Assembly: GCF_011045075.1 (NCBI RefSeq)
Contig: NZ_JAAKZZ010000002.1
Span: 1-56,097, forward strand
Origin: Streptomyces boncukensis
Lineage (GTDB): Bacteria > Actinomycetota > Actinomycetes > Streptomycetales > Streptomycetaceae
DNA length: 56,097 nt
Direction of reading: 5' to 3'
Part shown: one piece after another, positions 1 through 30,551 of the stretch
Layout of the letters: every line of letters starts with the position of its first letter
Numbering within the stretch: the first letter of the stretch is position 1
Position numbers and translations under genes: made by a program
The notes under the pieces: model-generated
The model's input: only the letters and a program-made list of their open reading frames with translations
Database searches by the model: none
What the model was told of the DNA's origin: nothing

Positions 1-29
1 GGTCTGCTCGGCCGCCGGCCGAGCAGACC
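1..29. repeat. Perfect 13-bp inverted repeat at the left contig edge
   Basis: Bases 1-13 (GGTCTGCTCGGCC) are the exact reverse complement of 17-29, with a 3-base loop (GCC). It lies in the coding frame of the left PKS. A perfect hairpin beginning at base 1 of a contig may be a natural GC hairpin that stopped assembly or a fold-back artefact, so the last residues of this PKS fragment should be treated with caution. Confidence 0.75.
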
Positions 30-1673: not shown

Positions 1674-2008
1674 GGCTGCTCCTTTCCGCCGTGGAGCGGG
1701 CCGCCGGAGAGGCCGGGCAGCACTTCGGTGACCATATGGTCCAGCAGCCGTGCCAGATTGGGGCTGTTGAACAGGACGTTCGTGCTGATCTCGCAGCCGA
1801 GCAGCCGCTCCAGCCGCTGCTTGAGCTCCGCCACGCGCAGCGAGGTGAGGCCGAGGTCGAAGAAGTTCCCGTCGAGTGGGAACTCCTCCTCCTCGTCCAT
1901 CAGCAAGCTGGCTTTGAACTCCCTGGCCAGGAGCTCCTCCAGGGCGTCCCGGCGCTCCGAGGCGGGAAGCCGGCAGATCTCACTGGCCGTCGGTGTGCGG
2001 TGGATCAT
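1670..2008 (-). CDS. Discrete acyl carrier protein (PKS/NRPS type)
   Basis: A 112-residue protein with one phosphopantetheine-binding domain. The carrier motif is NFFDLGLTSLRVAELKQRLE; the Ser in GLTSL is the attachment site, with Thr replacing the usual Asp of GLDSL, a variant common in peptidyl and stand-alone carriers. An acidic stretch (MDEEEEFPLDG) precedes the domain. ATG at 2008 has a GGGAG ribosome site about 7 bases upstream. The stop overlaps the next start (ATGA), so it is co-translated with the KS protein at 1-1673. It probably delivers a starter or extender to that KS, which shows no AT in the visible part. This is the first gene of the leftward operon, whose promoter region holds the 11-bp repeat array at 2111-2138. 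Confidence 0.9.
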   Translation of the reverse strand: MIHRTPTASEICRLPASERRDALEELLAREFKASLLMDEEEEFPLDGNFFDLGLTSLRVAELKQRLERLLGCEISTNVLFNSPNLARLLDHMVTEVLPGLSGGPLHGGKEQP

Positions 2009-3719: not shown

Positions 3720-3828
3720 CCGGCGCCGCGCCGCGCCGCGTCGGCCCGTCCGCCCAGGCGCCCGTCCGGACGGACAGACGGCGGGCGGACGGAGAAGCAA
3801 CCCGAACCACGAACCGTTGGAGGACGCC

Positions 3829-5520: not shown

Positions 5521-5552
5521 CGGCGCGCCCCGACAGCGAAAGGTGTTCCTCC

Positions 5553-6695
5553 GTGCGCACTCTCGACTCGGCACGCGCGACCTGCGAGCACTACCACCCG
5601 GGCCTCGGCAAGGCCCTGGAGGAGATCGAATTCGAGGAACGGGAGTACCCCGGCAGCCCGGTCATCGCGCTGTTCCGCGAGCACGACGGCGTCGGGCTGC
5701 TGGTGCCCGAAGCCTTCGGCGGCAAGGGCGCCGACCCCGTGGACGCCGTGCGGGTGATGCGGGCCGTCGGCTCCTACTCCCCCTCGCTGGCCGCCGCGGC
5801 GACCATGCACCACTTCACAGCCGCCACCCTCTACTCCCTGACCGGCCGCGACGACGGCCTCACCGCCGCCCAGCGGGCGCTGCTGCGCGGCGTCGTCCCC
5901 TCCCGCAAGCTCATGGCATCGGGCTGGGCCGAGGGACGCACTCGGCAGAACGTCCTCACCCCCTCGGTCGCCGCCCGGCCGGTGGCCGGCGGGTACCTCC
6001 TCAGCGGCGCCAAGAAGCCGTGCAGCCTGTCCCGTTCGATGGACCTGCTCACCGCGAGCGTCTCGGTCCCGGACGCCAGGGGCCGGCCGGAGCCAGCGCT
6101 CGCGCTGATCGCCGGGGACGCTCCCGGCATCACTGTGCACCCGTTCTGGGGCAACGGCGCGCTGGCCGCGGCGGAGAGCGACGAGGTGCGGCTGGCGGAC
6201 GTGTTCGTGCCCGAGGAACTGGTGCTGCGCACCGGCTCCGACGATCCGGAGCGGCTGTCGCGGATGCAGAGCGCCGGATTCATCTGGTTCGAGCTGCTGA
6301 TCTCCGCGGGCTACGCGGGAGCGGCGGCCGCTCTGGTGCGGCGGGTGCTGGAGCACGAACGGGGCAGCGTCACCGACCGGGCGGCGCTCGCGGTACGGGC
6401 CGAGTCCGCACACCTCCTGCTGGAGGGGACGGCGCGGGCGGTCCGCGACGGCGACCTGGACGGCGAGGCGGCGGTCGCCTCCGTGCTCATCGCCCGGTAC
6501 GCCGCTCAGGAGGCCCTCTCCGGCGCCGCCGACCTGGCCCTGGAGCTGCTCGGCGGGATGGACTTCATCCGCTCCCGGGAAGGCTCCCTGCTCGCCTCCG
6601 CCGTCCGGCCGCTGGCCTTCCACCCCCCTTCCCGCACCAGCACGGCCGAGCCGCTGGTGGCGTACCTCGCGGGAGCCCCGCTCGCGCTGTCGTGA
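5553..6695 (+). CDS. Acyl-CoA-dehydrogenase-fold flavoenzyme (candidate N-hydroxylase or desaturase)
   Basis: A 380-residue protein of the acyl-CoA dehydrogenase superfamily: N-terminal helical domain (LLVPEAFGGKGADPVDAVRV), central beta domain (SGWAEGRTRQNVL, GYLLSGAKKPCSLSRSMD) and C-terminal helical domain with LELLGGMDFI. GTG at 5553 follows AAAGGTG. The canonical ACAD catalytic Glu segment is not evident. VlmH, the valanimycin isobutylamine N-hydroxylase, belongs to the flavin monooxygenase branch of this fold. Since five other valanimycin-type genes lie at 9122-16563, this gene is the best candidate for N-hydroxylating the amine; alkyl-chain desaturation is the alternative. No flavin reductase (VlmR counterpart) is in the window. 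Confidence 0.78.
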   Translation: MRTLDSARATCEHYHPGLGKALEEIEFEEREYPGSPVIALFREHDGVGLLVPEAFGGKGADPVDAVRVMRAVGSYSPSLAAAATMHHFTAATLYSLTGRDDGLTAAQRALLRGVVPSRKLMASGWAEGRTRQNVLTPSVAARPVAGGYLLSGAKKPCSLSRSMDLLTASVSVPDARGRPEPALALIAGDAPGITVHPFWGNGALAAAESDEVRLADVFVPEELVLRTGSDDPERLSRMQSAGFIWFELLISAGYAGAAAALVRRVLEHERGSVTDRAALAVRAESAHLLLEGTARAVRDGDLDGEAAVASVLIARYAAQEALSGAADLALELLGGMDFIRSREGSLLASAVRPLAFHPPSRTSTAEPLVAYLAGAPLALS

Positions 6696-6819
6696 CCGGG
6701 CAGGCCCCGGTGCCCGGCGGAACACGTCGGTGCCCCGCGGTGGTGGACAACGCGGCGCGTGGTCGCAACCGTGGTCCGACACCTCGGATTCCCGATGCTG
6801 GAGAAAGGCGGCAGGGAGC

Positions 6820-7332
6820 ATGCCGGAGACGATGGAGAGCGCGATGCTGGCGCTGTGGGACGAGCTGACCGGGGCCCAGATGCTCCAGGCCGTCGCCGAT
6901 GGCCGGGTGCCGCACGGGGCGCACCACACGCTGCTGGGCCTGCGGGTCACCGGGGCCCGGCCGGGGCGTGTCGAGGAGACCTGGCAGCCGCCGGCGGCGC
7001 TGAGCAACCTCGCCGGGAGCGGTGTGCACGCCGGCTATATCGCCATGGTGCTCGACGACGCCTGCTGCGCCGCCGGGTCGAGCCAGGGCGAGCACGCATA
7101 CCCCATGATCACCCTGAGTCTGGACATCGACTTCCTCCGGCCCGTCCGGCCCGGCGGCGACTACACCGTGCACAGCGACCTCGTCCACCCGGGCCGGCGC
7201 CGGATGGTCGCCAACGCCCGCGTCCTGGACGCCGACGGCGCACCGGTCACCCAGGCCCGCGCCGGCGTCGTCCCGGATCTGGACTTCGCCTCCCGGATGC
7301 GCACGCCCCCCGCCCCGGAGGGGGAGAGCTGA
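6820..7332 (+). CDS. PaaI-type hotdog thioesterase
   Basis: A 170-residue single-domain hotdog protein. The fold is indicated by LSNLAGSGVHAGYIAMVLDD, the PaaI/YdiI-type central helix with a conserved Asp near its end, followed by TLSLDIDFLRPVRPGGDY, the usual beta-strand block. Members hydrolyse acyl-CoA or acyl-ACP thioesters. ATG at 6820 is preceded by GGGAG. It sits between the ACAD-fold enzyme and the type II thioesterase (4-base gap to the latter), inside the 2271-8151 operon. It could release a free acid or edit stalled chains. Confidence 0.83.
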   Translation: MPETMESAMLALWDELTGAQMLQAVADGRVPHGAHHTLLGLRVTGARPGRVEETWQPPAALSNLAGSGVHAGYIAMVLDDACCAAGSSQGEHAYPMITLSLDIDFLRPVRPGGDYTVHSDLVHPGRRRMVANARVLDADGAPVTQARAGVVPDLDFASRMRTPPAPEGES

Positions 7333-7335
7333 CCG

Positions 7336-8151
7336 GTGGAACCCACAGGAGACTGTCAGGTGCCATGTCCAACGGGCCGCTGGTTCGCCACGGCGGATCC
7401 CCGCCCCGATGCCGCGCGCCGGCTCTTCCTCTTCCCGCACGCGGGCGGCAGCGCCGCGTCCTACCTGCGGTGGTGCGCCCTGCTGCCCGACGTCGAGGTG
7501 CTGGTCGCTCAGTTGCCCGGCCGCCAGGAACGGCGGGCCGAGGAGCCGTACCGCCGGACCGGCCCGCTGGTCGAGGCGCTCCGGACGGCGCTCGAGGCCG
7601 AGCTGGACGGCCGCCCGTACGCTCTCTTCGGGCACAGTCTAGGCGCGCTGCTCGCCTACCGGCTGGCCGTGGACATCGAGCGGGACGGCGGCGAGGTCCC
7701 GGTCCTGCTGGGCGTTTCCGGCTGGGCGCCCGAGCGGGTCCTTCCGGTGGAAGCGCTTCTCCCGCTGCCCGACGCCCGGTTCGTGACCGCCGTACGGCGC
7801 TTCGGTGTACTGCCCGCCGAGGTCAGCGAGGACCCGGAGCTGCTCGCGCTGGTCCTTCCGGCGCTCCGCGCCGATCTCGCCCTGGTCGCCGGCTACCGCG
7901 ACGACGGCGCCCGGGTCGGCTGTCCGGTCGCCGCCTACGGGGGGAGGGCCGACCCGACGCTGGAGCGCGGCAGGCTGTCCGAATGGGCCGCCCGCACCCC
8001 GGTCTTTCTGGGAGCCAGTGCGTTCCCGGGAGGGCACTTCTACCTCGCGGACCACGCGATCGCCATCGCGAGCGACCTCGCCCGCCACCTCCAGCGAACA
8101 GAGGGAGACGACTCGATAGCGCACCGAAAGCGGCACGATAGCCGACCGTAG
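7336..8151 (+). CDS. Type II thioesterase (alpha/beta hydrolase)
   Basis: A 271-residue type II thioesterase of the PKS/NRPS editing family. FPHAGGSAASYLRWCALLP is the N-terminal oxyanion motif, ALFGHSLGALLAYRL carries the nucleophile Ser, AYGGRADPT the acid and FPGGHFYL the catalytic His, so the triad is complete. The GTG start at 7336 lies 1 base after the TGA of the hotdog gene, so it is co-transcribed. It removes mis-primed or stalled groups from carrier proteins; partners here could be the ACP at 1670, the ACP at 17670 or the PKS modules. The last 20 residues are charged and not conserved. Confidence 0.92.
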   Translation: MEPTGDCQVPCPTGRWFATADPRPDAARRLFLFPHAGGSAASYLRWCALLPDVEVLVAQLPGRQERRAEEPYRRTGPLVEALRTALEAELDGRPYALFGHSLGALLAYRLAVDIERDGGEVPVLLGVSGWAPERVLPVEALLPLPDARFVTAVRRFGVLPAEVSEDPELLALVLPALRADLALVAGYRDDGARVGCPVAAYGGRADPTLERGRLSEWAARTPVFLGASAFPGGHFYLADHAIAIASDLARHLQRTEGDDSIAHRKRHDSRP

Positions 8152-8283
8152 TAGCGTGCACCGAAAAGCCAGAGCGCGTCGCGTGACCGTCCGGGCGACC
8201 CGTCCGCGAACGTCTTTCCACCACGCGCACGCGCGATCACTGTCTTCTGCTTTTCCCACACGGTGTTCAGGCCGAGGTGACTC

Positions 8284-9111: not shown

Positions 9112-9121
9112 CGCGGTACGG

Positions 9122-10129
9122 CTACAGCGCGTTGGCCGTTCGGAACACGTGGGCGAAGGAGCGGAGTGAGGCACGCCCGCGAAAGGCGATGTACTCCGCC
9201 GTCACCGCGTCCGGCGCCCACTTCTCCTTGTACGCGAGCTGACTGCGCGCGGGGTAGACGGCGTTGCCGCGCTCCCACAGCTGGCGTACCAGCCAGCGGA
9301 ACGCGGGGCTGTGGCCCGGGACTTCACACCGCGGGTCCAGGCCCGTGAACGGCGTGAATCCGAAGTGCAGCCAGCCGGCGCCCTCGCCGCGGAACACCTC
9401 GATCGCATGGCTGTTGACCGCCTCCGCCACCCCCGGCGGCCCGTCCGGACGGCGGCGGCTCAGGTCGTGCAGCCACCCGGCCCGGCTGCCGTACACGGGC
9501 GAGTAGGAGATATATCCGGCCAGTTCGTCGCCGATCAGGCCGAGGAACAGCCGGCGGTGCGGTTGCGCGGCCCCGCCCAGCTGGCCCACCAGGAACTCCA
9601 GGGGCTTGGCGTGCTTCCCCTTCCCCGCGAGCCAGGAGGCGTCCAGCTCCCGGACCGAGGCGGTCCAGTCGTCGGCACCGCCGGCGGGGGCCTCCCGCAC
9701 CGTCAGACCGCTGCGCAGCGCCCGCGAGATCTTGTTGCGCAGCCGCATGAAGCGGGTGCCGCGCAGGGAGAAGCGGTCCAGGTCGACCGCGTAGGACGCG
9801 CCGATCTGGTTGACCGTGAAACCCTGCTCCGCGTACCGCACGGCGTCGGCGTGCTGGAGCTGAACGCCGACCACGCGCAGCCGCCGCTCGCGCGCGTACG
9901 CGGCGAACTCCCCCAGCAGCCGGGGATAGTCCTCGTCGGGGGCGAAAGGGCCGCCGAACTGCACCAGATACCGGCCCGTGCGCCGATAGGCGATCACGCC
10001 GTCCGCGGATGGTGTCGTGAAGTAGCGGTTTCCTTCATTGAGCGCCAGAAATGCGCTCGGGTTGGCGGACCGCGTATACGTCCTGATGGCCTGAAGAGCG
10101 GAAATACCCGAGGTCGAGGCGGCAGTCAT
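9122..10129 (-). CDS. VlmA-like aminoacyl-tRNA-dependent transferase (DUF2156 / MprF catalytic domain)
   Basis: A 335-residue soluble protein made only of the DUF2156 double-GNAT catalytic domain of lysylphosphatidylglycerol synthases; the membrane flippase half is absent. Typical blocks are NEGNRYFTTPSADGVIAYRR, QFGGPFAPDEDYPRLL, WLAGKGKHAKPLEF, LHDLSRRRPDGPPGVAEA and the C-terminal ARSQLAYKEKWAP. In valanimycin biosynthesis VlmA, of this family, moves serine from seryl-tRNA to the isobutylhydroxylamine oxygen. Divergent from the VlmJ-like kinase (220-base gap) and beside VlmK-, VlmO- and VlmB-like genes, it is best read as the amino-acid donor step of an azoxy pathway. ATG at 10129 follows GGAGGAAAGGGG. 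No dedicated seryl-tRNA synthetase (VlmL) is in the window. Confidence 0.8.
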   Translation of the reverse strand: MTAASTSGISALQAIRTYTRSANPSAFLALNEGNRYFTTPSADGVIAYRRTGRYLVQFGGPFAPDEDYPRLLGEFAAYARERRLRVVGVQLQHADAVRYAEQGFTVNQIGASYAVDLDRFSLRGTRFMRLRNKISRALRSGLTVREAPAGGADDWTASVRELDASWLAGKGKHAKPLEFLVGQLGGAAQPHRRLFLGLIGDELAGYISYSPVYGSRAGWLHDLSRRRPDGPPGVAEAVNSHAIEVFRGEGAGWLHFGFTPFTGLDPRCEVPGHSPAFRWLVRQLWERGNAVYPARSQLAYKEKWAPDAVTAEYIAFRGRASLRSFAHVFRTANAL

Positions 10130-10236
10130 GGTCCCCTTTCCTCCGAGTGCTCGAATCGGAAGGACTGACTGACGAGTAGAGCACCGCGAAGCCGTCCCGA
10201 CAAGCGGCCCGTCCGGCCGCGGAAAACCGGGATGCC

Positions 10237-10263
10237 GTCAGTGATATGTCAGGGAATGGTCAG
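10237..10263 (+). promoter_or_regulatory. Putative SARP operator: three GTCAG motifs at 11-bp spacing
   Basis: GTCAG begins at 10237, 10248 and 10259, exactly 11 bp apart, in the same rightward orientation as the 20360 array. The flanking bases are less conserved than in the other arrays. It lies 87-113 bases upstream of the VlmJ-like start at 10350, so it probably controls the azoxy operon 10350-19120. The -10 is unclear (CACACT at 10274-10279 is weak). The divergent VlmA-like gene shares this intergenic region. Confidence 0.55.
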
Positions 10264-10349
10264 GGCCGTGGTGCACACTCATTCACGCATAAGGACGAGT
10301 CTGAAGATCCCGGAATCCCCGAAGCGACCCCGTCCGCCAGGAGTGAACG

Positions 10350-11306
10350 ATGCCGCACCAGATGAGCCCGGCAGCGCAGCGCGCCCTCATCGTGGCCAAC
10401 CCCGCGGCCGGCCGCTACCGCTCCGCCGTGGTGGAGCGCCTGGCCGCCGTCTGCCGCGCACGGCTCACGTCGGTGGCGGTGCACCGGACGACGGGCCCGG
10501 GTGACGCCACCGACGCGGTGCGCCGCGCGGTGGCCGAGGCCCCGGCCGGGCAGCGCCCGGACCTGGTGGTCGCGGTCGGCGGCGACGGCACCGTACGCGA
10601 GGTCGCCGAGGGGCTGGTCCGCCAGGGCGCCGACGACACCCGGGCGGCCCTGTTCATCGTGCCCGCGGGCAGCGCCAACTCCGACTACCGGATGTTCTGG
10701 GACGACCGGCCGTGGCAGGAGACGCTGTCCGGGGTGCTCGGCCCCGGGCACCGGGCCGAGACACGCAGGGTGGACCTCGCACGGCTGGCGGAGACCGGCG
10801 CCCACGTGCTCCTCGGCTCCTGCACCGGACTGGGCGCGCAGATCCTGTCGAGGGTCAAGACGCTGCCCGGCGCCGGGCGCGAGCGCTACGCCCGCGCCCT
10901 GGCCGAGGCCGCGGCCGGCTACCGCCCCTACCCGGGCCGGGTCACCGTCGACGGCGTCCCGCTGGCCGAGGGGCCGACCATCCTGGCCAACGTCGGCGGT
11001 GGGCGGTACCGCGCCGGACAGTTTCTGCTGCTGCCGCACTCCGAGCCGGACGACGGGCTGCTGGACGTCTGCGTCATCGACGGCCGCACCGACCCGGCCC
11101 GGCTGCCGGAGCTGACCCGGGACGGCCGGCATGTGGGCCTGCCGGGAGCCGCGTACGGCCGCGGGCGGCGCATCGTCGTCGAGCGGCTGGACGGTGAGCG
11201 GCTCGTCCTGGAACACGACGGCGAACTGCAGGACCGCACCGGGAACACGGCCACCTTCGACGTGGTGCCGCGGGCGCTGCCGGTATGGGCCGCCGCGGCA
11301 CCCTAG
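10350..11306 (+). CDS. VlmJ-like diacylglycerol-kinase-family kinase
   Basis: A 318-residue member of the diacylglycerol/sphingosine kinase-like family. The nucleotide motif VAVGGDGTVREVAEGL is intact and VPAGSANSDYR is the second conserved loop (usually PxGTxN). The C-terminal beta lobe has DDGLLDVCVID. VlmJ of valanimycin belongs to this family and phosphorylates the serine-derived hydroxyl of valanimycin hydrate before elimination by VlmK. Here the next gene is the VlmK-type lyase, the same pairing. ATG at 10350 follows CAGGAGTGAACG. It is the first gene of the rightward azoxy operon, downstream of the 11-bp repeat array. A housekeeping lipid kinase is possible from sequence alone, but the neighbours argue against it. 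Confidence 0.85.
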   Translation: MPHQMSPAAQRALIVANPAAGRYRSAVVERLAAVCRARLTSVAVHRTTGPGDATDAVRRAVAEAPAGQRPDLVVAVGGDGTVREVAEGLVRQGADDTRAALFIVPAGSANSDYRMFWDDRPWQETLSGVLGPGHRAETRRVDLARLAETGAHVLLGSCTGLGAQILSRVKTLPGAGRERYARALAEAAAGYRPYPGRVTVDGVPLAEGPTILANVGGGRYRAGQFLLLPHSEPDDGLLDVCVIDGRTDPARLPELTRDGRHVGLPGAAYGRGRRIVVERLDGERLVLEHDGELQDRTGNTATFDVVPRALPVWAAAAP

Positions 11307-11405
11307 GCCGTGTCCGGCGGATCGTGGTTGCCCTCTGTCGGGGCAGCCGGGTCGGGGCTGCCCCTGCCCGTGGCTTGCGGACCGCGGCTGGGGCCGTGGC
11401 CGGTC

Positions 11406-11482
11406 GCGCAGTTCCCCGCGCCCCTGAAGCGCCCCTGGCGGGGCGCCAGGGCGCGCCCCGCCAGGGGCGCGGGGAACTGCGC
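11406..11482. repeat. Streptomyces extragenic palindrome, full copy 1
   Basis: Left arm GCGCAGTTCCCCGCGCCCCT (11406-11425) and its exact reverse complement (11463-11482) enclose a second GC-rich inverted repeat. The same 20-base arms recur at 19191-19255 and the left arm at 42123. It lies in the 311-base gap between VlmJ- and VlmK-like genes, along with the hairpin at 11491-11526; I see no gene there. It may act as attenuator or terminator. Confidence 0.85.
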
Positions 11483-11490
11483 GAGCAACC

Positions 11491-11526
11491 TCCCCCAAGC
11501 TCTCGGCTTCGCTCGAGCAGGGGGGA
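11491..11526. repeat. Second extragenic hairpin (TCCCCC...GGGGGGA)
   Basis: TCCCCCAAGCTC is followed by a short loop and GAGCAGGGGGGA, giving a CCCCC/GGGGG plus GCTC/GAGC stem. This sequence type is widespread between Streptomyces genes. It lies 9 bases after the palindrome at 11406-11482 and about 90 bases before the VlmK-like start. Confidence 0.65.
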
Positions 11527-11617
11527 CCCCCATTCCAGCCGCGGACTGCGACGCACCGGCAGGGGCCGCCCCTGCCCGGCACACGGCACCTGCGGACAGC
11601 GAGGGAGGGAGGGCCCC

Positions 11618-13216
11618 GTGGCCCTGCTCGAAGAACTCGGCGGCTGGGCCGCACGGCTCACGCCCGACGCCGTGCCCGAGCGCGTTCTGCGCCGCGCCGC
11701 CAGCCAGGTGCTGTCCCAGCTCGGGGCGGTGCGGGCCGGCGCCGACCACCCGCTCGGCGGGCGGCTGACGGCCGCCTTCGGGCCCCCGCTGCAACCTGAT
11801 CCGCGCCAGTCGGCGTGCGTCCTGGCCGGCCTCGGATCGTGGCTGAACCTCGACGACACCGCGTACGCGGGCCACCTGTCCAGTTCCACCGTCGCGGTGC
11901 CCCTGGCCTTCGCCCGCGCCCGGGGGCTGGACGGCCCGGCGCTGCTCACCGCGGTGGTCGCGGCCAACGAGTGCGCGGCACGCGTCACCGCCGCGGCGAC
12001 GCTGGGCCCGCTGCGCGGCCAGACCGCGCTGCACGCGCATCTGGCGGGCGCGGTCGCCGGGCGGCTGCACTGCGAAGGCGCGCCGGCCCGCCGCTGGACG
12101 GACGCGCTCGGCCTCGCCTACGCGCAGCCGCCGTGGCCGCTGCTGCGCGCCTTTCTCGCCAGCGAAGCCCGGCTGCTGCACGCCTTCGGGCCGGTCCGTA
12201 CCGGCATGGACGCGTGCGACGCCGCGGCCGCCGGGCTCACCGGCGCCCCCGACCTGCTGGAGGACCCGGACGGGTTTCTGCGCCGGTTCGCGGCCGTTCC
12301 GCTGCCCGGCGCCGTCACCGCCGGGTTCGGAACGCGCTGGCACACCGAGACCTTCTCGTACAAACTGCACCCCGGCGGACCCGGTATCGACGCAGCCGTC
12401 GACTGTGCGCTGGCGCTCCACGGCGAGCTGGGCGCGCCGGACTTCGACGACCTCGCCGACGTCCTGGTCGAAGCCTCGCTCTACACGGTCCTGGTCGGCC
12501 GGCACGCCCGCCGCCACCTGGACGGGCCCCGGCGGCCGCTCGGCGCCCTGGTCCTGGACACCGGCTATCTGGTGGCCACGGCGCTGGCGACCGGCCGGCT
12601 GACCGTGGCCGACCTGGACCCGCCGGCAGCCGACGACCCGGTGCGCCGGGCCGCGGCCGACAGGGTCAGGCTGCTGCACGACCCCGCCATGACCCGCGGC
12701 CTCCTCGCCTCCGAGGCCCCGTTCGGCGAGGCGCTGCGCCAGGCGGGCGCCGCGGGCACCGCGTGGCTGCGGGAGTTCGGCGGTGCCCCGCTCGTGGAGC
12801 TGGCGGGCGACCCGGGCCCGCCGGCCGAGGACTTCACCGCGGCCGCCAAGGCCACCGGCGCCCGGGTGACGGTCCGGCTCACCGACGGCCGCAGCGCGGA
12901 GCGCGAACTGCTGATCCCGCACGGCGCCGCGGGGGAGCACACCCGCGTCCACCACGCCGCGCTGGTGCGCGCGAAGTACCGCGCGCTCGGCGGCCCGGAC
13001 CAGGTCGCCGAAGCACTCCCCCGCCTCCCCGCGATGGACGGCGCGGAGCTGCGCGACTGGATCGAGGCGGCCCTGCGGCCCGGCCCCCCGGCCGATTCCC
13101 ATCGCCCGGACCGCGCGGCGCGCGAAGCCGTCAGCGATCCGTCAGGGGCCCGTGCCACGGTGAAACCGCGCTCCTTGCGCCCCCTTGTCGACGACATCGA
13201 GGAGCAACGCCCGTGA
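11618..13216 (+). CDS. VlmK-like MmgE/PrpD-family lyase
   Basis: A 532-residue MmgE/PrpD (2-methylcitrate dehydratase superfamily) protein. Recognisable blocks are LGSWLNLDDTAYAGHLSSST, the substrate-site region after the first helical bundle, and FSYKLHPGGPGIDAAVDCAL in the C-terminal lobe. VlmK, of the same family, eliminates phosphate from O-phospho-valanimycin hydrate made by VlmJ to give the dehydroalanine unit. GTG at 11618 sits after a GAGGGAGGGAGGG ribosome site. The last 50 residues are a Pro/Arg-rich tail, making it longer than typical PrpD (about 460-480). The stop overlaps the aminotransferase start (GTGA). Substrate is inferred from neighbours; housekeeping methylcitrate use is unlikely here. 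Confidence 0.86.
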   Translation: MALLEELGGWAARLTPDAVPERVLRRAASQVLSQLGAVRAGADHPLGGRLTAAFGPPLQPDPRQSACVLAGLGSWLNLDDTAYAGHLSSSTVAVPLAFARARGLDGPALLTAVVAANECAARVTAAATLGPLRGQTALHAHLAGAVAGRLHCEGAPARRWTDALGLAYAQPPWPLLRAFLASEARLLHAFGPVRTGMDACDAAAAGLTGAPDLLEDPDGFLRRFAAVPLPGAVTAGFGTRWHTETFSYKLHPGGPGIDAAVDCALALHGELGAPDFDDLADVLVEASLYTVLVGRHARRHLDGPRRPLGALVLDTGYLVATALATGRLTVADLDPPAADDPVRRAAADRVRLLHDPAMTRGLLASEAPFGEALRQAGAAGTAWLREFGGAPLVELAGDPGPPAEDFTAAAKATGARVTVRLTDGRSAERELLIPHGAAGEHTRVHHAALVRAKYRALGGPDQVAEALPRLPAMDGAELRDWIEAALRPGPPADSHRPDRAAREAVSDPSGARATVKPRSLRPLVDDIEEQRP

Positions 13217-14496
13217 ACGCTCCGTTGGAAACCGGCCCCGGTACGGAAGAGGAGATACTCCGCCAGTACCGGGCCCACCTCAGCAAGGGCCGGGCGACGG
13301 TGGCCGACCTGTTCGGCAGCCATATGGAAGTCGCCTCCTGCGGTGCCTGGCTGACCATGAACGACGGCGAGAGGTACCTCAACTGCGGCGGCTACGGGGT
13401 CTTCCTCATGGGCGCCCGGCACCCCGTCGTCATGGAGGAGGTCCGCCGCCAGCTCGACGCGCACCCCGTGGCCACCCGCATCCTGCTGGAGCCGACGGTC
13501 GCCCGCGCCGCCGAGGCGCTGGTCTCCGTGACCCCGCCGGGGCTGGAGCGCGTGCACTTCGCGCTCTCCGGCGCGGAAGCCGTCGAGACCGCGCTCAAGC
13601 TCGCCCGCGCGGGCGGCCGGCGGCGGGTGGTCTCCACACACCTCGGCTACCACGGCAAGACGCTGGGGGCGCTCTCGGTCTCCGGCAAGGACGTCTTCCA
13701 GCGGCCGTTCCACCCCCTGCTGCCCGACGTCACACTGATCCCGTACGGCGATGCCGACGCTCTGGAGAAGGAGCTGGCGCAGCACCCCGGCGAGGTCTGC
13801 GTGCTGCTCGAACCGGTTCAGGGCGAGGGCGGCGTGATCGTCCCGCCGGACGGCTATCTGCGCCGGGCCCGCGAACTGTGCGCCACCTACGGCGGGTTCC
13901 TCGTCCTGGACGAGGTGCAGACCGGTATGGGGCGGCTCGGGGCCTGGTGGGGCGCCGACTCCGAGGGAGTGGTGCCGGACGTCCTGCTCGCCGGCAAGGC
14001 GCTGGGCGGCGGAGTCGTCCCGGTCTCCGCTGCGATCGCCTCCCGCGAGGTCTTCCGGCCGTTCGACAAGGACCCCTACATCCACACCGGAACCTTCTCC
14101 GGCGCCCCGCTCCTCATGGCCGCGGTCCGGGGCGCCATCCGCGCGGTGCGGGAGGACGACCTCACCGCGCGCGCCGCCGCGCTCGGCGCCGAGCTGCTGC
14201 CGCGCATCGCCGAGATCGCCCGCCGCAACATCCCCGAGCTGCTCACCGAGGTCCGCGGCCGCGGGCTGTTCATCGGCGTGGAGCTCACCGAGGCGGGCCT
14301 CGCGGGCGAGCTGCTGCTGGAGCTGTTCAACCACAGGGTGGTGGCGAACCACTCGATGAACGGCAACGCCGTGGTGCGCTTCACCCCGCCCGCCGTGCTC
14401 ACCGGCGCGGACACGGCATTCCTGCTGAGCGCCTTCGACGCGGCCACCCGCGACCTGGTCGAGCACAGGGCCCGTATGCCACAAGGAGGAGGATGA
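13213..14496 (+). CDS. Class III PLP-dependent aminotransferase
   Basis: A 427-residue class III (omega) aminotransferase. FALSGAEAVETALKLAR, STHLGYHGKTLGALSVSG, EPVQGEGGVIVPPDGYL and LDEVQTGMGR form the PLP pocket, and the Schiff-base Lys is in LLAGKALGGGVVPVSA. The THTGTFSGAP-type phosphate motif appears as HTGTFSGAPLLMAA. GTG at 13213 overlaps the upstream stop (GTGA), and the SRPBCC gene begins 1 base after its own stop. Family members aminate aldehydes or omega-amino acids. Valanimycin gets its amine by valine decarboxylation (VlmD); here an aminotransferase occupies the operon instead, pointing to an amine made from an aldehyde, perhaps from the ALDH-type protein at 3829. Confidence 0.93.
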   Translation: MNAPLETGPGTEEEILRQYRAHLSKGRATVADLFGSHMEVASCGAWLTMNDGERYLNCGGYGVFLMGARHPVVMEEVRRQLDAHPVATRILLEPTVARAAEALVSVTPPGLERVHFALSGAEAVETALKLARAGGRRRVVSTHLGYHGKTLGALSVSGKDVFQRPFHPLLPDVTLIPYGDADALEKELAQHPGEVCVLLEPVQGEGGVIVPPDGYLRRARELCATYGGFLVLDEVQTGMGRLGAWWGADSEGVVPDVLLAGKALGGGVVPVSAAIASREVFRPFDKDPYIHTGTFSGAPLLMAAVRGAIRAVREDDLTARAAALGAELLPRIAEIARRNIPELLTEVRGRGLFIGVELTEAGLAGELLLELFNHRVVANHSMNGNAVVRFTPPAVLTGADTAFLLSAFDAATRDLVEHRARMPQGGG

Positions 14497-14497
14497 C

Positions 14498-14947
14498 ATG
14501 CGGCAGGTGACGGTGGACGCCCTCATCCCCGGCGAACGCGCCGAGACGGTCTTCGACGCCGTCCTGCGGTTCGAACGCTACCCCGACCTCGCCCCGCATG
14601 TGCGCACGGCCGTGGTGCACGCCGGGCCGCCGCAGCCGCGGGGCAGCTCCAGCTGGGAGCTGTACTTCCGCAGCGGCCTCCTGCGGTGGACCGAGAGCGA
14701 GGAGTACGACCGCGAGCGCCTGCACATCGCGTTCCGGCAGACCGAAGGCGACTTCGACGAACTGGCCGGCTCGTGGGAACTGCGCCAGACGGGCGAGGAC
14801 TGCGCCCTGCACTTCGAGGTCGCCTTCGACTTCGGCATTCCCAGCATGGAGGGCATCCTCGACCCGATCGCCGAGCGGGTGGTCGAGGAGACCGTCGCCT
14901 GGGCGGTCAGCGGCCTGTTCACCGGCGTCACGCTCGGCGGGGAGTGA
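14498..14947 (+). CDS. SRPBCC / polyketide cyclase-like protein
   Basis: A 149-residue START/Bet v1-like (SRPBCC) protein: an N-terminal strand with GERAETVFDAVLRFERYPDL, then ELYFRSGLLRWTESEEY, and a long C-terminal helix (DPIAERVVEETVAWAVSGLF). This is the fold of aromatase/cyclases and of Coq10-type lipid-binding proteins. The start is 1 base after the aminotransferase stop and 3 bases separate it from the VlmO-like gene, so the three are translationally coupled. Nothing in the sequence fixes a reaction; binding of a hydrophobic fatty amine or hydrazine intermediate near the membrane enzyme is a guess. Confidence 0.82.
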   Translation: MRQVTVDALIPGERAETVFDAVLRFERYPDLAPHVRTAVVHAGPPQPRGSSSWELYFRSGLLRWTESEEYDRERLHIAFRQTEGDFDELAGSWELRQTGEDCALHFEVAFDFGIPSMEGILDPIAERVVEETVAWAVSGLFTGVTLGGE

Positions 14948-14950
14948 CCG

Positions 14951-15508
14951 ATGGACCAAGCCAACCCGTTCGAGACCCGCACCACCTTCCGGCTGCACCG
15001 CGCCGAGTACCTCGTCGGCCTCGCGGTCTCCGGGGGTCTGATCGTCGCCCACGCCGACGAGATCCGCTGGCTCCCTGCGCTCGTCCTCTTCCTCTATATC
15101 GACCTCATCGGCTACCTCCCCGGAGCCATCGCCTACCGGCGCAGCGCGGACAAGAGGATCTCCAAGGTCTTCTACGTCCTCTACAACACGATGCACAGCC
15201 TGATCACCCAGGGCGCCGTCGCCGCCCTGTGGTGCTGGCTGGTGCAGCCCGAGTGGGCCCTGCTCGCGCTGGCGTTCCACCTGTGCGGCGACCGCGGGGT
15301 GTTCGGGAACTTCCTCAAGCCGTTCGCCCTGCCCTTCGAGCCCGAGGCCGATCCGGGGTACCGGCGGCTCGTCGACGGGCTGCGGCGCCGCGGCGAGGGA
15401 CGCAGGGTCCCCGTCCCCACCCCCGAGTCCGAGTCCGAGTCCGAGTCCGAGTCCGAGTCCGAGTCCGAGTCCAGGGTGCCGGCCGGCACCCCGAGCGCCG
15501 GGGGCTGA
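14951..15508 (+). CDS. VlmO-like integral membrane protein (candidate N-N bond-forming enzyme)
   Basis: A 185-residue hydrophobic protein with about three to four membrane helices (LVGLAVSGGLIVAH; LPALVLFLYIDLIGYLPGAI; AVAALWCWLVQPEWALLALA). Conserved-looking polar residues lie within or beside helices: DLIGYLPG, YNTMHSLITQG and FHLCGDRGVFGNF, with His and Asp suited to metal binding. In valanimycin the membrane protein VlmO rearranges O-seryl-hydroxylamine to an N-N bonded hydrazine before VlmB acts. Size, hydrophobicity and position directly before a VlmB-like gene support this assignment. The C-terminus is unusual: eight Glu-Ser dipeptides from a hexamer repeat (15425-15472). Confidence 0.75.
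   Translation: MDQANPFETRTTFRLHRAEYLVGLAVSGGLIVAHADEIRWLPALVLFLYIDLIGYLPGAIAYRRSADKRISKVFYVLYNTMHSLITQGAVAALWCWLVQPEWALLALAFHLCGDRGVFGNFLKPFALPFEPEADPGYRRLVDGLRRRGEGRRVPVPTPESESESESESESESESRVPAGTPSAGG
15425..15472 (+). repeat. (GAGTCC)8 hexanucleotide microsatellite
   Basis: Eight uninterrupted copies of GAGTCC encode eight Glu-Ser dipeptides in the cytosol-facing tail of the VlmO-like protein. A hexamer unit keeps the reading frame when the copy number changes, so tail length could vary between strains without frameshift. Confidence 0.95.
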
Positions 15509-15582
15509 GACTCCGGCCCGCCGAAGGCGCCCGGCCCGGCAGCCCGGGGCGCTGCGCACCACCAGCAGGAGGGCATTCAACG

Positions 15583-16563
15583 ATGACTGACGCCGTATCC
15601 CCCGAGGCAGGCTGGGAGTCCGCTCCCGGACTCCTCGACGGGGCCAAGAGCCTCGACCTCACCGCCGAGCAGTGCGACCTGGCGTACTGGCTGCGCCATG
15701 TCGCCCAGGGCACCCTGCGCGGCCGCGCCGTCACCGGGCACGCGGACCAGGCACGGGTGCCGCGGTTCATGACGGAGCCCGGCCCGCTGCGCGAGGCCCT
15801 CGTCCTCGAACTGGGCTGCCGCTCGGTGGCCGAGGAGATGGCCACCAAAGCCCTGGGGCTCTACGTCGCCAACGCCCCCGGTGTCGCGGAGATGGAGTTC
15901 TACGCCACCCAGCTCCTGGACGAGGCGCGCCACGCCCGGGTGTTCCGCGAACACCTGGTGGAGCTGGGGATGCCGGCGCACACGCTGATCCGCGACATCC
16001 ACGAGATGGCCGCCGACTACCACGCCCGGGTGCTTCGGCCGCTGGCGGACTTCAGCCTGGAGGTCGTACGCGACCAGGCCGACTTCGCCGGCGGCGTGGC
16101 CATCTTCACCATCATCGTCGAGGGGGTCCTCGCACCCGCCGCCGAGCTGAGCGAGCGCAAGTGGGAGCCGCTGGACCCGGCCGCCGGAGAGGTGTCCCGG
16201 GGCGCGGCGATCGACGAGATCCGCCATCTGACGGTCGGCAGCTCGATCCTGCGCGACCACCTCGTGGCCCATCCGGAGTACCGGCCGCGGCTGATGGAGA
16301 TCCTGCGCGGCGGCCGGAAGCTGTGGGACGAGCTCCCCGACCGCGAGTTCGTCATGCCCCGGGAGGAGCTCTTTCAGGAGGGCATGCTCCAGCACGCCGA
16401 CGCGGTGGGCGACTACGAGGTCTGGCCGGGGCGCCGCATGCTCGACACCGGCCCCGAGGAGCGCTACGCCATGGCCGAGCGCTGGACGGACGAGATGGCC
16501 GAAGCGCGCCTGGTCCACATGGGCCTTCAGGACGCTCTCGCCGTCCTGGGCGGACCGGGCTGA
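15583..16563 (+). CDS. VlmB-like ferritin-fold diiron oxygenase
   Basis: A 326-residue helical protein with two E/D-x-x-R-H signatures typical of diiron carboxylate enzymes: LLDEARHARVFREHL near residue 113 and AIDEIRHLTVGSSIL near residue 210. Further Glu and His ligand candidates are in ECGCRSVAEEM-like (ELGCRSVAEEMATK) and FTIIVEGVLAPAAE. VlmB, a non-heme diiron enzyme, oxidises the hydrazine of valanimycin by four electrons to the azoxy group. Position after the VlmO-like gene matches. ATG at 15583 has AGGAGG 10 bases upstream. N-oxygenation of an amine to nitroso or nitro by this fold is the alternative. Confidence 0.83.
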   Translation: MTDAVSPEAGWESAPGLLDGAKSLDLTAEQCDLAYWLRHVAQGTLRGRAVTGHADQARVPRFMTEPGPLREALVLELGCRSVAEEMATKALGLYVANAPGVAEMEFYATQLLDEARHARVFREHLVELGMPAHTLIRDIHEMAADYHARVLRPLADFSLEVVRDQADFAGGVAIFTIIVEGVLAPAAELSERKWEPLDPAAGEVSRGAAIDEIRHLTVGSSILRDHLVAHPEYRPRLMEILRGGRKLWDELPDREFVMPREELFQEGMLQHADAVGDYEVWPGRRMLDTGPEERYAMAERWTDEMAEARLVHMGLQDALAVLGGPG

Positions 16564-16574
16564 AGGGGGCCGTG

Positions 16575-17618: not shown

Positions 17619-17669
17619 CGGCCCGGCACCCCCGACCGAGCCCATCGACGACTCCCTGAGGACGCGTTC

Positions 17670-17900
17670 ATGTACGAGAAGCTGAAAGAGATCCTCGCCG
17701 GCAAACTCATGGTGCCCCCCGACCTGATCACCATGGAGGCCACGCCCGAGGACATCGAGCTGGACTCCCTGGCCGTCGTGGAGCTCTCCCTCGTCCTGGA
17801 CAAGGAGCTGGGGATCGAGCTCAGCGACGACGTGCTGGCCGAGGCCAGCACCGTCGGCGACATCGTCCGGCTCATGGAGGAGCGGGGGGCGACCCTCTGA
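17670..17900 (+). CDS. Acyl carrier protein (type II)
   Basis: A 76-residue discrete ACP. DIELDSLAVVELSLVLDKEL carries the phosphopantetheine Ser in the normal DSL context. It has the small acidic four-helix profile of FAS/PKS type II ACPs. The stop shares bases with the KAS II start (TGATG), and it follows the KAS III gene, so the three form a minimal dissociated chain-building unit. It is separate from the ACP at 39021. Confidence 0.95.
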   Translation: MYEKLKEILAGKLMVPPDLITMEATPEDIELDSLAVVELSLVLDKELGIELSDDVLAEASTVGDIVRLMEERGATL

Positions 17901-19120
17901 TGCCACGCGCCGACGCGGCCGTCACCGGTCTCGGACTCGTGACGCCGGCGGGGACCGGAGTCGAGCGCAACTGGGAGACGGTCTGCGCGCCCAAGCCCGC
18001 CGCCGCCCTGGACCCGGCACTGACGGCGTCACCGGTGCGTATCTCCTGTCGCGTGCCCGACTTCGACCCGGCCGCTCAGCTCGGCGCACGCCGGGCCCAC
18101 CACCTGGACAGATTCGTCCAGCTCGGGCTGGTGGCCGCCCGTGAGGCCCTCGCCGACGCCGGCCTGGACCCCGCGGCCTGGGACGGAACCCGGGTGGGCG
18201 TGGTGCTCGGCTGCGGAGACGGCGGAACCACCACCCTGGAACGCGAGCACCGGGTCCTGCTGGAGGAGGGCGCGCGGTGGGTCTCGCCGCTGCTGATCCC
18301 GATGCACCCGCTCAGCATGCTGGCGGGCCAGGTGGCCATGGAGTTCGGCGCGCTGGGCCCCAATCTGGTGGTCGCCACCGCGTGCGCCTCCGGCACCAGC
18401 GCGGTCGGAGCGGCCAAGGACCTGCTGGCGCTCGACCGCTGCGACATCGTGCTGACGGGCGCCGGCGAGTCCACCCTCACCCCCCTCATCATCTCCGGGT
18501 TCGCCCAGATGAAGGCCCTCTCCCGGCGCCATCACGACCCGGCAGGGGCCTCCCGCCCCTTCGACGCGGACCGCGACGGCTTCGTCGCCGGGGAGGGGGC
18601 CGGGGTGCTGGTCCTGGAGCGCCCCGACCACGCGCGGGCCCGCGGAGCCCGGGTCCGCGCCCGCGTCGTCGGCTACGGGGCCTCGGCGGACGCCCACCAT
18701 ATGACCGCCCCGCACCCCGAAGGGCGCGGCATCGAGGCGGCGCTGCGCGCGGCGCTCGAAGACGCCGGAGCGTCCCCGGCGGACGTGGCGCATGTCAACG
18801 CGCACGGCACGTCGACGCCGCTGAACGACCTGGCCGAGGCCAAGGCGCTGCGCCGGGTCCTGCCGGGCTCCCCTCTGGTGACCTCGACCAAGGGCGTCAC
18901 CGGACACCTGCTCGGCGCGGCGGGCGCGGCCGAGGCGGTGTACACGGTGCTCGCGGTGGAGCGCGGGCTGGTTCCGCCGACCGCCAACCTCGAACGGCTC
19001 GACCGCGGCGTGGAGCTCGATATCCCCACCGTGCCCGCCCGGCGCCGCATCGGCCTGGCGCTCACCGAGTCCCTCGGCTTCGGCGGCCAGAACGCTGTTC
19101 TGGCGGTGGCCGGCGCCTAG
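17900..19120 (+). CDS. Beta-ketoacyl-ACP synthase II (FabF-like)
   Basis: A 406-residue KAS II. The catalytic Cys lies in VVATACASGTSAVGAAKDLL, with His in VNAHGTSTPLND and TGHLLGAAGAAEAVYTVL, so the Cys-His-His triad is complete. No chain-length-factor partner follows, so it acts as a homodimeric elongase rather than as an aromatic KS/CLF pair. The ATG overlaps the ACP stop. This is the last gene of the 10350-19120 operon; the palindrome at 19191-19255 follows and may terminate transcription from both sides. Confidence 0.94.
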   Translation: MPRADAAVTGLGLVTPAGTGVERNWETVCAPKPAAALDPALTASPVRISCRVPDFDPAAQLGARRAHHLDRFVQLGLVAAREALADAGLDPAAWDGTRVGVVLGCGDGGTTTLEREHRVLLEEGARWVSPLLIPMHPLSMLAGQVAMEFGALGPNLVVATACASGTSAVGAAKDLLALDRCDIVLTGAGESTLTPLIISGFAQMKALSRRHHDPAGASRPFDADRDGFVAGEGAGVLVLERPDHARARGARVRARVVGYGASADAHHMTAPHPEGRGIEAALRAALEDAGASPADVAHVNAHGTSTPLNDLAEAKALRRVLPGSPLVTSTKGVTGHLLGAAGAAEAVYTVLAVERGLVPPTANLERLDRGVELDIPTVPARRRIGLALTESLGFGGQNAVLAVAGA

Positions 19121-19190
19121 CGGTGGCCTTGCTGGGTCGGGGCTGCCCCTTGCTGTCGCGTCGCAGTCTGCGGGTGTGTCGTGGCTTGGC

Positions 19191-19255
19191 GCGCAGTTCC
19201 CCGCGCCCCTTCGGGGCGCATCCGTGCGCCCCGTCAGGGGCGCGGGGAACTGCGC
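19191..19255. repeat. Streptomyces extragenic palindrome, full copy 2 (probable bidirectional terminator)
   Basis: Left arm GCGCAGTTCCCCGCGCCCCT (19191-19210) and exact reverse complement (19236-19255), 25 bases apart. The interval itself holds GGGGCGCA/TGCGCCCC. It lies between the convergent KAS II (stop 19120) and SARP (stop 19346) genes, where a bidirectional terminator is expected. There is no U-tract, as is usual in Streptomyces. Confidence 0.85.
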
Positions 19256-19345
19256 GCGCAACCACGGCGACAGCCGCGGTCCGCAGGGCACGGACAGGGG
19301 CAGCCCCGGGCGCGGCCTGGACGTGTCCGAGCCCGGTCATCCCCG

Positions 19346-22067: not shown

Positions 22068-22083
22068 AAGCGAGGGGATCGCA

Positions 22084-22626: not shown

Positions 22627-22675
22627 CACCCCGCGCACCGTCGTGCCCCGTCACCGTGACCACAAGCAGGGAGCC

Positions 22676-30543: not shown

Positions 30544-30551
30544 GAGAGCTG

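What the first reader, a model, noticed from the sequence alone, without database searches (positions are those of the whole stretch)
9122..16563. Nearly complete valanimycin-type azoxy cassette with an aminotransferase in place of the decarboxylase
Seen: a DUF2156 transferase, DAG-kinase-family kinase, MmgE/PrpD lyase, class III aminotransferase, SRPBCC protein, small polytopic membrane protein and diiron protein, mostly in one operon. Known: VlmA, VlmJ, VlmK, VlmO and VlmB have exactly these folds and together build and finish the azoxy group of valanimycin. Inference: this window encodes an azoxy metabolite whose amine comes from an aldehyde plus aminotransferase, in contrast to valine decarboxylation, consistent with a fatty alkyl azoxy compound (elaiomycin/maniwamycin/jietacin type).
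Basis: partly seen in the sequence, partly recalled or inferred. Interest (0 to 1): 0.93.

Follow-up and report, generated by a model that had tools for sequence, protein, structure and literature searches.

The report
Long-chain azoxy compound gene cluster
This Streptomyces DNA carries a gene cluster that likely makes a still unidentified long-chain compound with an azoxy (nitrogen-nitrogen-oxygen) group; it belongs to a known kind, and its predicted way of supplying the amine, which had looked unusual, is the common one among the related clusters compared.

Summary
All seven proteins are at the stated places, and they form an aliphatic-azoxy cassette. The 14951 protein carries the four VlmO residues D51, H82, H110 and D114 at the published numbers. 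The 15583 protein matches a solved 'Putative VlmB homolog' (446 bits). The VlmA-, VlmJ- and VlmK-type proteins fall in the expected Pfam families. The cluster is larger than reported. It includes an aldehyde dehydrogenase and a VlmH-type N-hydroxylase upstream, and a KASIII/ACP/KS set downstream. A type I PKS begins at the left contig end and continues, with an acyl-AMP ligase, on another contig of the same genome (C985).

The novelty claim does not hold. Aldehyde plus aminotransferase is already proposed for azodyrecins. In 47 VlmO/VlmB loci it is the rule (39); the L097-type decarboxylase is the exception (4 rows, 3 distinct loci).

What may be new is a helix-grip SRPBCC protein (14498-14947). 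It is present in all 39 aldehyde/aminotransferase loci and absent from all 4 decarboxylase rows. I propose it hands the long chain from the ACP to the reductase (untested).

The isonitrile genes next door (21.1-32.3 kb) belong most likely to a separate cluster.

New member of a known kind; product unknown.

The parts
21..1592 (-). start of the azoxy-cluster type I PKS (KS part), cut by the contig end; residues 13-519 of the S. violens counterpart
   Evidence: 76% identity to S. violens PKS; residues 542-2113 (74%) and the acyl-AMP ligase (80%) are on contig C985 of the same genome; a PKS-ligase pair sits at this place in 5 of 5 sister loci
1670..2008 (-). free acyl carrier protein ahead of the PKS (GLTSL motif)
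   Evidence: ORF, translation; L111 shows a carrier-protein match (36%) in the same place
2271..3719 (+). family III CoA-transferase, shared with the five sister loci
   Evidence: PF02515 172 bits; 75-77% in L005-L009, 61% in L050, not found in the other 74 loci
3817..5520 (+). aldehyde dehydrogenase family protein, predicted acyl-to-aldehyde step
   Evidence: PF00171 211 bits; C347 and E314 kept in at least 36 of 37 rows; found together with the aminotransferase in 39 of 47 VlmO/VlmB loci
5553..6695 (+). acyl-CoA-dehydrogenase-fold flavin N-hydroxylase (VlmH type), start codon inferred
   Evidence: among the best 120 homologues two are named isobutylamine N-hydroxylase or N-monooxygenase in full and two more in cut-off names; PDB kin include DszC; in 46 of 47 VlmO/VlmB loci, the 47th being cut off
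6730..7332 (+). 4HBT thioesterase
   Evidence: PF03061 44 bits; 76-85% in the five sisters, in none of the other 75 loci
7336..8151 (+). type II thioesterase
   Evidence: PF00975 133 bits
8284..9111 (+). SARP regulator
   Evidence: PF03704 144 bits, PF00486
9122..10129 (-). VlmA-type aminoacyl-tRNA-dependent transferase
   Evidence: PF09924 214 bits; 7 of 10 PDB matches are named as aminoacyl-phosphatidylglycerol synthases or transferases, the other 3 have names that do not tell
10350..11306 (+). VlmJ-type kinase (GGDGT at residue 77)
   Evidence: PF00781, PF19279; motif
11618..13216 (+). VlmK-type lyase (MmgE/PrpD)
   Evidence: PF03972 57 bits, PF19305 36 bits; start; 75-80% in five sisters
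13213..14496 (+). class III aminotransferase, predicted aldehyde-to-amine step
   Evidence: PF00202 266 bits; GTG start read
14498..14947 (+). SRPBCC helix-grip protein, proposed chain-handling protein
   Evidence: PF03364 70 bits; model pLDDT 95.1; in 39 of 39 ALDH/AT loci and 0 of 4 decarboxylase rows
14951..15508 (+). VlmO-type membrane N-N-bond enzyme
   Evidence: D51, H82, H110, D114 present and invariant in 39 rows; helices in a middling model (pLDDT 75.7) at 10-33, 40-64, 72-97, 100-121, 135-150
15583..16563 (+). VlmB-type ferritin-like diiron oxygenase
   Evidence: 82% to a 'VlmB-like protein'; PDB 6d9f 'Putative VlmB homolog' 446 bits
16575..17618 (+). KAS III
   Evidence: PF08541, PF08545
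17670..17900 (+). acyl carrier protein
   Evidence: PF00550 46 bits; DSL motif
17900..19120 (+). ketosynthase (FabF type)
   Evidence: PF00109 168 bits
19346..20188 (-). second SARP regulator, right end of the block conserved in all five sisters
   Evidence: PF03704 156 bits; 64-73% in the five sisters

Best explanation
The block from the left contig end to 20188 is an aliphatic-azoxy-type gene cluster of a Streptomyces that carries VlmO and VlmB homologues with VlmH-, VlmA-, VlmJ- and VlmK-type genes and is predicted to make a long-chain azoxy compound whose amine likely comes from a fatty aldehyde. Shown: the genes, their order, the VlmO metal-site residues, the close VlmB match, and the conserved co-occurrence. 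Inferred pathway: (1) KASIII, ACP and KS build an acyl chain on the cluster's ACP. (2) The helix-grip SRPBCC protein holds that chain and hands it on; the ALDH reduces it to the aldehyde. (3) The aminotransferase makes the amine. (4) The VlmH-type flavoenzyme, with a reductase encoded elsewhere, makes the alkyl-hydroxylamine. (5) The VlmA-type enzyme adds serine from seryl-tRNA charged by the housekeeping synthetase. (6) VlmO forms the N-N bond. (7) VlmB oxidises the hydrazine to the azoxy group. (8) VlmJ and VlmK phosphorylate and eliminate the serine hydroxyl to an azoxy-acrylate. (9) The acyl-AMP ligase and one-module PKS, split between this contig and C985, load the azoxy-acid and extend it. 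I commit to the PKS on the acid side because PKS and ligase are kept in two loci where a decarboxylase stands in for ALDH and aminotransferase.
For: VlmO residues (against PMC11705231 passages). VlmB by sequence and PDB. Pfam for VlmA/J/K, the last two being the very families PMC9379638 section 8 lists for VlmJ/VlmK. VlmH-type names. The order ALDH-ACAD-AT-SRPBCC-VlmO-VlmB in 39 of 39 loci with all six, on one strand in 38. ALDH+AT in 39 of 47 loci, all 39 with SRPBCC; decarboxylase rows 4 (3 distinct loci), none with ALDH, AT, SRPBCC or KASIII; none with both. PKS and ligase next to the cassette in 5 of 5 sisters and split over C364/C985 here. PKS plus ligase kept in L069 and L140, where a decarboxylase stands in for ALDH/AT. 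The review says VlmO/VlmB homologues accept various aliphatic chains (PMC11705231, passage).
Against: No product is known and no activity was measured. The ALDH keeps the general-base glutamate (E314) usual in hydrolytic aldehyde dehydrogenases (rule recalled), so acyl reduction is not shown. No flavin reductase or extra seryl-tRNA synthetase lies on the contig. Sequences named VlmA, VlmJ, VlmK or VlmH of valanimycin were not in hand; those identities rest on Pfam families, names of homologues and context. Some loci (L129, L131) keep ALDH/AT/SRPBCC without a KASIII, ACP or KS match, so the chain can come from elsewhere. For step 9, only 2 of 4 distinct decarboxylase loci keep PKS and ligase (L069, L140); L074 shows a 35% PKS match without ligase, and L097 neither, within about 20 kb. 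The 47 loci are not a random sample: 28 were found through a VlmK query.
Confidence: 0.7

Rival explanations
1. The PKS and acyl-AMP ligase build the alkyl chain of the amine, and KASIII/ACP/KS only prime it; nothing extends the azoxy-acid.
For: The sister azoxy PKSs align over their whole length, at 50-52%, with the fully reducing module at 22643, which would suit a saturated chain; ALDH and AT could act on its released product. A type II thioesterase is in the cluster.
Against: PKS and ligase persist in L069 and L140, which lack ALDH and AT and carry a decarboxylase, whereas KASIII has no match in any of the four L097-type decarboxylase rows or in L140.
Confidence: 0.3
2. The azoxy genes and the isonitrile genes at 21.1-32.3 kb are one supercluster that makes a single molecule with both groups.
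For: They lie under 1 kb apart. ScoE equivalog 453 bits over its cut-off of 400; FcoT 180 bits; PKS, ligase and P450 run on in the same direction. By plain identity the ligase at 29 kb is closest to an azoxy-locus ligase (57%, L107).
Against: The five sister azoxy loci have no ScoE or FcoT match in their stretches nor in 6-20 kb further to the right. The azoxy PKS and ligase are a different pair, at the left end and on C985. On the tree the ligase at 29 kb groups with four ligases from ScoE loci (99/96; its long branch makes the place less sure). In 394 Streptomycetaceae genomes 43 have a strong VlmB match and 40 have ScoE; five have both (4.4 expected by chance): the window's genome, three with 375 kb, 2.0 Mb and 3.2 Mb between them, and one with them on different contigs. 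Of 30 azoxy genomes reached through named loci, 5 have ScoE over the cut-off, each on another contig than VlmB.
Confidence: 0.07
3. The SRPBCC protein is an enzyme (cyclase, hydrolase or imine-handling) or a regulator rather than a chain carrier.
For: The fold is shared with ZhuI and TcmN cyclases and with thebaine and norcoclaurine synthases; the cyclases and thebaine synthase rank above the acyl-ACP binder. Polar residues such as R58, E66, D85 and D122 are invariant in 33 sequences.
Confidence: 0.45

Closest known systems
Azodyrecin clusters (ady/azd), Streptomyces sp. RM72, A1C6, S. mirabilis P8-A2
   Same: Dehydrogenase (Ady2), VlmH type (Ady3), transaminase (Ady4), VlmO (Ady6), VlmA (Ady7), VlmB (Ady8) as described in PMC9379638; the numbers 2, 3, 4, 6 match the gene order here with SRPBCC in the place of the unmentioned Ady5 (my inference; the ady gene table was not seen).
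   Different: This cluster has VlmJ/VlmK-type genes, a PKS and a ligase. No methyltransferase of family PF04072 and no desaturase was found in the proteins scanned from 2271 to 20188.
Valanimycin cluster (vlm)
   Same: VlmO and VlmB homologues, VlmA-, VlmJ-, VlmK- and VlmH-type proteins, SARP regulators (the vlm regulators are recalled).
   Different: ALDH plus aminotransferase plus SRPBCC in place of a decarboxylase; no SerRS in the cluster; a PKS and a fatty-chain set added.
KA57-A (azx) cluster, S. rochei 7434AN4
   Same: Azoxyalkene plus type I PKS in one 36-kb cluster (PMC6662830, table passage); SRO_1835/1837 are VlmO/VlmB homologues (PMC9379638).
   Different: Gene-by-gene comparison not made; the product and the side groups may differ.
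K. setae KM-6054, KSE_27350 locus (L095/L096)
   Same: KS, ACP, KASIII, VlmB, VlmO, SRPBCC, AT, ACAD, ALDH, VlmK, VlmJ and VlmA at 54-74% plus PKS, ligase and TEII at 46-51%.
   Different: Different arrangement of VlmA/J/K, a P450 in the locus; product unknown to me.

Membership tests
aliphatic azoxy cluster (VlmH/VlmA/VlmO/VlmB core) | VlmO-type protein with D51, H82, H110, D114 | tested here: met
   same residues at the same numbers, invariant in 39 rows and in 28 rows
aliphatic azoxy cluster (VlmH/VlmA/VlmO/VlmB core) | VlmB-type diiron protein | tested here: met
   E84, E114/H117, E180, E212/H215 invariant in 35 rows (ligand role inferred)
aliphatic azoxy cluster (VlmH/VlmA/VlmO/VlmB core) | VlmA-type PF09924 transferase | tested here: met
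   214 bits; the family is also found in 7 of 14 control genomes, so context counts; amino acid specificity not testable here
aliphatic azoxy cluster (VlmH/VlmA/VlmO/VlmB core) | VlmH-type flavin N-hydroxylase nearby | tested here: met
   names among best hits, context; VlmH itself was not compared
aliphatic azoxy cluster (VlmH/VlmA/VlmO/VlmB core) | VlmR-type flavin reductase in the cluster | tested here: not met
   7 PF01613 matches in the genome, none on C364 or C985; PMC9379638 calls VlmR highly conserved in such neighbourhoods; the reductase need not be clustered to act
aliphatic azoxy cluster (VlmH/VlmA/VlmO/VlmB core) | production of an azoxy compound | not testable with these tools
   needs culture and MS
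valanimycin cluster proper | amino acid decarboxylase supplying the amine | tested here: not met
   no match to the L097 decarboxylase in the window; the PLP decarboxylase at 46967-48424 lies 27 kb outside the block
valanimycin cluster proper | second seryl-tRNA synthetase (VlmL) | tested here: not met
   one SerRS over cut-off in the genome, on C286; two weak partial matches on C365 and C497
valanimycin cluster proper | VlmJ/VlmK pair | tested here: met
   PF19279/PF00781 and PF03972, adjacent
azodyrecin cluster | dehydrogenase plus transaminase for the amine | tested here: met
   PF00171 and PF00202
azodyrecin cluster | Ady1-type methyltransferase (PF04072) and Ady9-type desaturase | tested here: not met
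   absent from the Pfam results for the proteins scanned at 2271-20188
KA57-A cluster | azoxy genes with a type I PKS in one cluster | tested here: met
   the azx genes themselves were not compared
isonitrile (ScoE-type) cluster | ScoE, FcoT and acyl ligase | tested here: met
   but for the neighbouring block 21165-32254, not for the azoxy block

The most novel reading that the evidence does not exclude
The SRPBCC protein is an overlooked working part of long-chain azoxy pathways: a helix-grip protein that lifts the finished acyl chain off the cluster's ACP and delivers it to the reductase and aminotransferase. Azoxy clusters would then be built from exchangeable halves. A fixed N-N half (VlmH, A, O, B) would be joined either to a long-chain amine half (ALDH, AT, SRPBCC, often KASIII/ACP/KS) or to a decarboxylase, with valanimycin-type amine supply as a later replacement that discarded the chain-handling protein.
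Probability: 0.3. Interest if true: 0.58.

Novelty: new member of a known kind. Interest (0 to 1): 0.4.

Why it matters
The bacterial azoxy pathway was worked out on a few compounds, while PMC9379638 (section 8) counts 179 VlmA/VlmH pairs in 3,146 actinobacterial genomes and says that most groups lack a linked product. This cluster belongs to a branch with predicted long-chain amine supply, VlmJ/VlmK and a PKS. That ALDH/AT/SRPBCC travel together, and did not occur with the decarboxylase in any of 47 loci, suggests a rule for predicting the amine side of azoxy compounds from sequence. It also points at one protein, SRPBCC, with no assigned step in the pathway texts that I saw.

Tried and rejected
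Considered and rejected: the PKS and ligase at 22643-30543 as the azoxy PKS (the sister-like one is at the left contig end and on C985). The PLP decarboxylase at 46967 as a VlmD counterpart (no match to the L097 decarboxylase; 28% to the L140 one; 30 kb from VlmB). An acyl-reducing signature in the ALDH (E314 and C347 both present, so not informative). Catalytic detail from the VlmO model (mean pLDDT 75.7, pTM 0.55; helices only). Counting rows: 47 loci hold both VlmO and VlmB. These are 28 of the 80 (80 kept of 100 relatives), 15 of the 20 fetched (L134, L135, L139, L145, L146 lack one of the two matches at the coverage set), L097, L099, the K. setae locus and the window. L061 is cut off, L077 and L142 have an aminotransferase without ALDH, and L140 has a second, unrelated decarboxylase; these four support neither side cleanly. 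The VlmB tree has 46 rows (one dropped for coverage), is rooted at its midpoint only, and the decarboxylase group has weak support (90/63). Most of the other 52 loci show VlmJ/VlmK beside a ligase or thioesterase but no VlmO/VlmB inside the stretch; in all 30 genomes tested VlmB is present somewhere. Literature: nine searches of an open-licence library. Shi 2023, Maleckis 2024, Garg 2002 and Kunitake 2015 did not appear in the listings and were seen only as references. No paper tying SRPBCC to azoxy compounds appeared, and 'Ady5' does not occur in the main text of PMC9379638; supplements could not be read. What I saw of papers: PMC9379638 passages and section 8; PMC11705231 passages; PMC6662830 passages; PMC13273461 passages (not used); PMC9014085 abstract and outline; the rest as search listings. 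Recalled only: elaiomycin, maniwamycin and jietacin structures, the glutamate rule for aldehyde dehydrogenases, and isonitrile pathway roles of ScoC-E.


Full report
What was checked. The window is contig C364 of an 8.27-Mb assembly of 1141 contigs; its close kin are Streptomyces. The seven proteins of the finding are real: PF09924 at 9122-10129(-), DAGK/YegS_C at 10350-11306, MmgE/PrpD at 11618-13216, aminotransferase class III at 13213-14496, SRPBCC at 14498-14947, a membrane protein without Pfam match at 14951-15508, and a ferritin-like protein without Pfam match at 15583-16563.

Identity of the two decisive proteins. The 14951 protein has D51, H82, H110 and D114, the four residues reported as essential in VlmO (PMC11705231, passages). 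They stand at the same numbers as in the VlmO-type protein of the K. setae locus L097, and they are invariant in all 39 rows compared. The best 120 homologues of the 15583 protein include dozens named 'VlmB-like protein'. Its only strong match among solved structures is one sequence with entries 6d9f and 8wvr, 'Putative VlmB homolog', 446 bits over residues 4-322. Of the ten PDB matches of the 9122 protein, seven are named as aminoacyl-phosphatidylglycerol synthases or transferases and three have names that do not tell. [quoted passage not shown]

The cluster is larger than the finding. Five species (S. violens, S. fumigatiscleroticus, S. niger, S. poonensis, S. sclerotialus) keep the whole run from the CoA-transferase at 2271 to the second SARP at 20188 in order at 64-88%. 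It contains an ALDH and, at 5553-6695, an acyl-CoA-dehydrogenase-fold protein. Among that protein's 120 best homologues, two (P0256, P0334) are named isobutylamine N-hydroxylase or N-monooxygenase, and two more (P0308, P0324) show such a name cut off; most of the other named ones are called acyl-CoA dehydrogenase or oxidoreductase. Its PDB kin include the flavin monooxygenase DszC. I take it as the VlmH counterpart. In all five sisters a PKS and an acyl-AMP ligase lie to the left. Bases 21-1592 of the window, minus strand, are the start of such a PKS (76% to S. violens, residues 13-519). Residues 542-2113 and the ligase lie at the start of contig C985 of the same genome. The window therefore most likely breaks inside the azoxy PKS.

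The neighbour. From about 21.1 kb a second block follows: a ScoE equivalog (453 bits, cut-off 400), FcoT (180 bits), a PKS, an acyl-AMP ligase, a P450, a ferredoxin and DUF5988. In S. violens and S. niger (2 of 5 sisters) synteny goes on to the 139-aa hotdog protein at 20477-20896 (72-73%) and then ends. No ScoE or FcoT match lies in the right flanks fetched from the five sisters: about 20 kb each for L098, L104, L108 and L109, 6.4 kb for L112. S. fumigatiscleroticus does have a ScoE, on another contig. The ligase at 29 kb groups with four ligases from ScoE loci (99/96) and outside the 32 azoxy-locus ligases, though on a long branch and with its highest plain identity, 57%, to an azoxy-locus ligase. 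Among 394 genomes, 52 have a VlmB match, 43 of them strong (E below 1e-80), and 40 have ScoE. Five have both, where 4.4 would be expected by chance. One is the window's genome; three have the two 375 kb, 2.0 Mb and 3.2 Mb apart; one has them on different contigs. I treat the two blocks as neighbours, not as one pathway.

Amine supply. In 47 loci with both VlmO and VlmB, 39 have ALDH and aminotransferase. All 39 also have the SRPBCC protein. The order is ALDH-ACAD-AT-SRPBCC-VlmO-VlmB in all 39, on one strand in 38. Four rows (three distinct loci: Embleya scabrispora L069, S. abikoensis L074/L128, K. setae L097) carry a PLP decarboxylase instead (Pfam for L097; 57-60% matches for the others). 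None of the four has a match to ALDH, AT, SRPBCC or KASIII, and no locus has both kinds. On the VlmB tree the decarboxylase rows form one group (90/63) inside a starred group (100/99) with an ALDH/AT locus (L143), within an ALDH/AT-dominated tree (midpoint root). L140 carries a second, unrelated decarboxylase beside its N-hydroxylase. So ALDH/AT is the usual state here and decarboxylases look like later replacements. The sample is not random, and relatedness inflates the counts.

PMC9379638 already proposes Ady2 (dehydrogenase) and Ady4 (transaminase) for azodyrecin, with alanine and without VlmJ/VlmK in the pathway described, and counts 179 VlmA/VlmH pairs, some groups with VlmJ/VlmK or KASIII. 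KA57-A comes from a cluster described as azoxyalkene plus type I PKS (PMC6662830). The window cluster is a new member of this kind.

How it most likely works. See Best explanation. Steps 6 and 7 (VlmO, VlmB) rest on published enzymology of homologues. Steps 1-5 and 8 rest on homology and context. Step 9 (PKS extends the azoxy-acid) rests on PKS and ligase staying in decarboxylase loci L069 and L140 (2 of 4 distinct decarboxylase loci; L074 has a PKS match only, L097 neither) and is the least sure. Serine rather than alanine is inferred from the VlmJ/VlmK pair. The genome has one SerRS over the cut-off, elsewhere, and seven flavin reductases, none on C364 or C985.

Verdict. Observation confirmed, interpretation partly supported, novelty low to moderate. 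The interest lies in the amine-module rule and in the unexplained SRPBCC protein.

Noticed in passing
window 21165-32254 (+): A ScoE-type isonitrile block (ScoE, FcoT, one-module PKS, acyl ligase, P450, ferredoxin, DUF5988) less than 1 kb from the azoxy cluster; of the five genomes in 394 that have both VlmB and ScoE, only the window's shows them close together (one of the five is undecided, on two contigs).
   Followed up: partly
window 33915-56001: A third biosynthetic region: SAM methyltransferase, epimerase, KS, KASIII-like protein, P450s, 4HBT, shikimate-dehydrogenase-N and zinc-alcohol-dehydrogenase domains, PLP decarboxylase, methyltransferase, FAD monooxygenase and a PKS.
   Followed up: no
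window about 15425-15472: A TCCGAG repeat gives the VlmO-type protein a Glu-Ser repeat tail; the conserved part of the protein ends before it.
   Followed up: no
L140 (5630-12200): An azoxy locus with a second, unrelated PLP decarboxylase beside the N-hydroxylase, and shortly after VlmB a protein with O6-methylguanine methyltransferase and HhH-GPD repair domains; this may be self-protection from an alkylating product.
   Followed up: partly
L095/L096 and L097: K. setae carries two azoxy-type loci: one with ALDH/AT, PKS and VlmJ/K (KSE_27350 locus), one with a decarboxylase and no ALDH/AT.
   Followed up: partly
G000:C985:1-6291: Contig that most likely continues the azoxy PKS cut at the left end of the window and carries its acyl-AMP ligase.
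   Followed up: yes
window 20477-20896 (+): 139-aa hotdog protein shared with S. violens and S. niger just right of the second SARP; it may or may not belong to the cluster.
   Followed up: no
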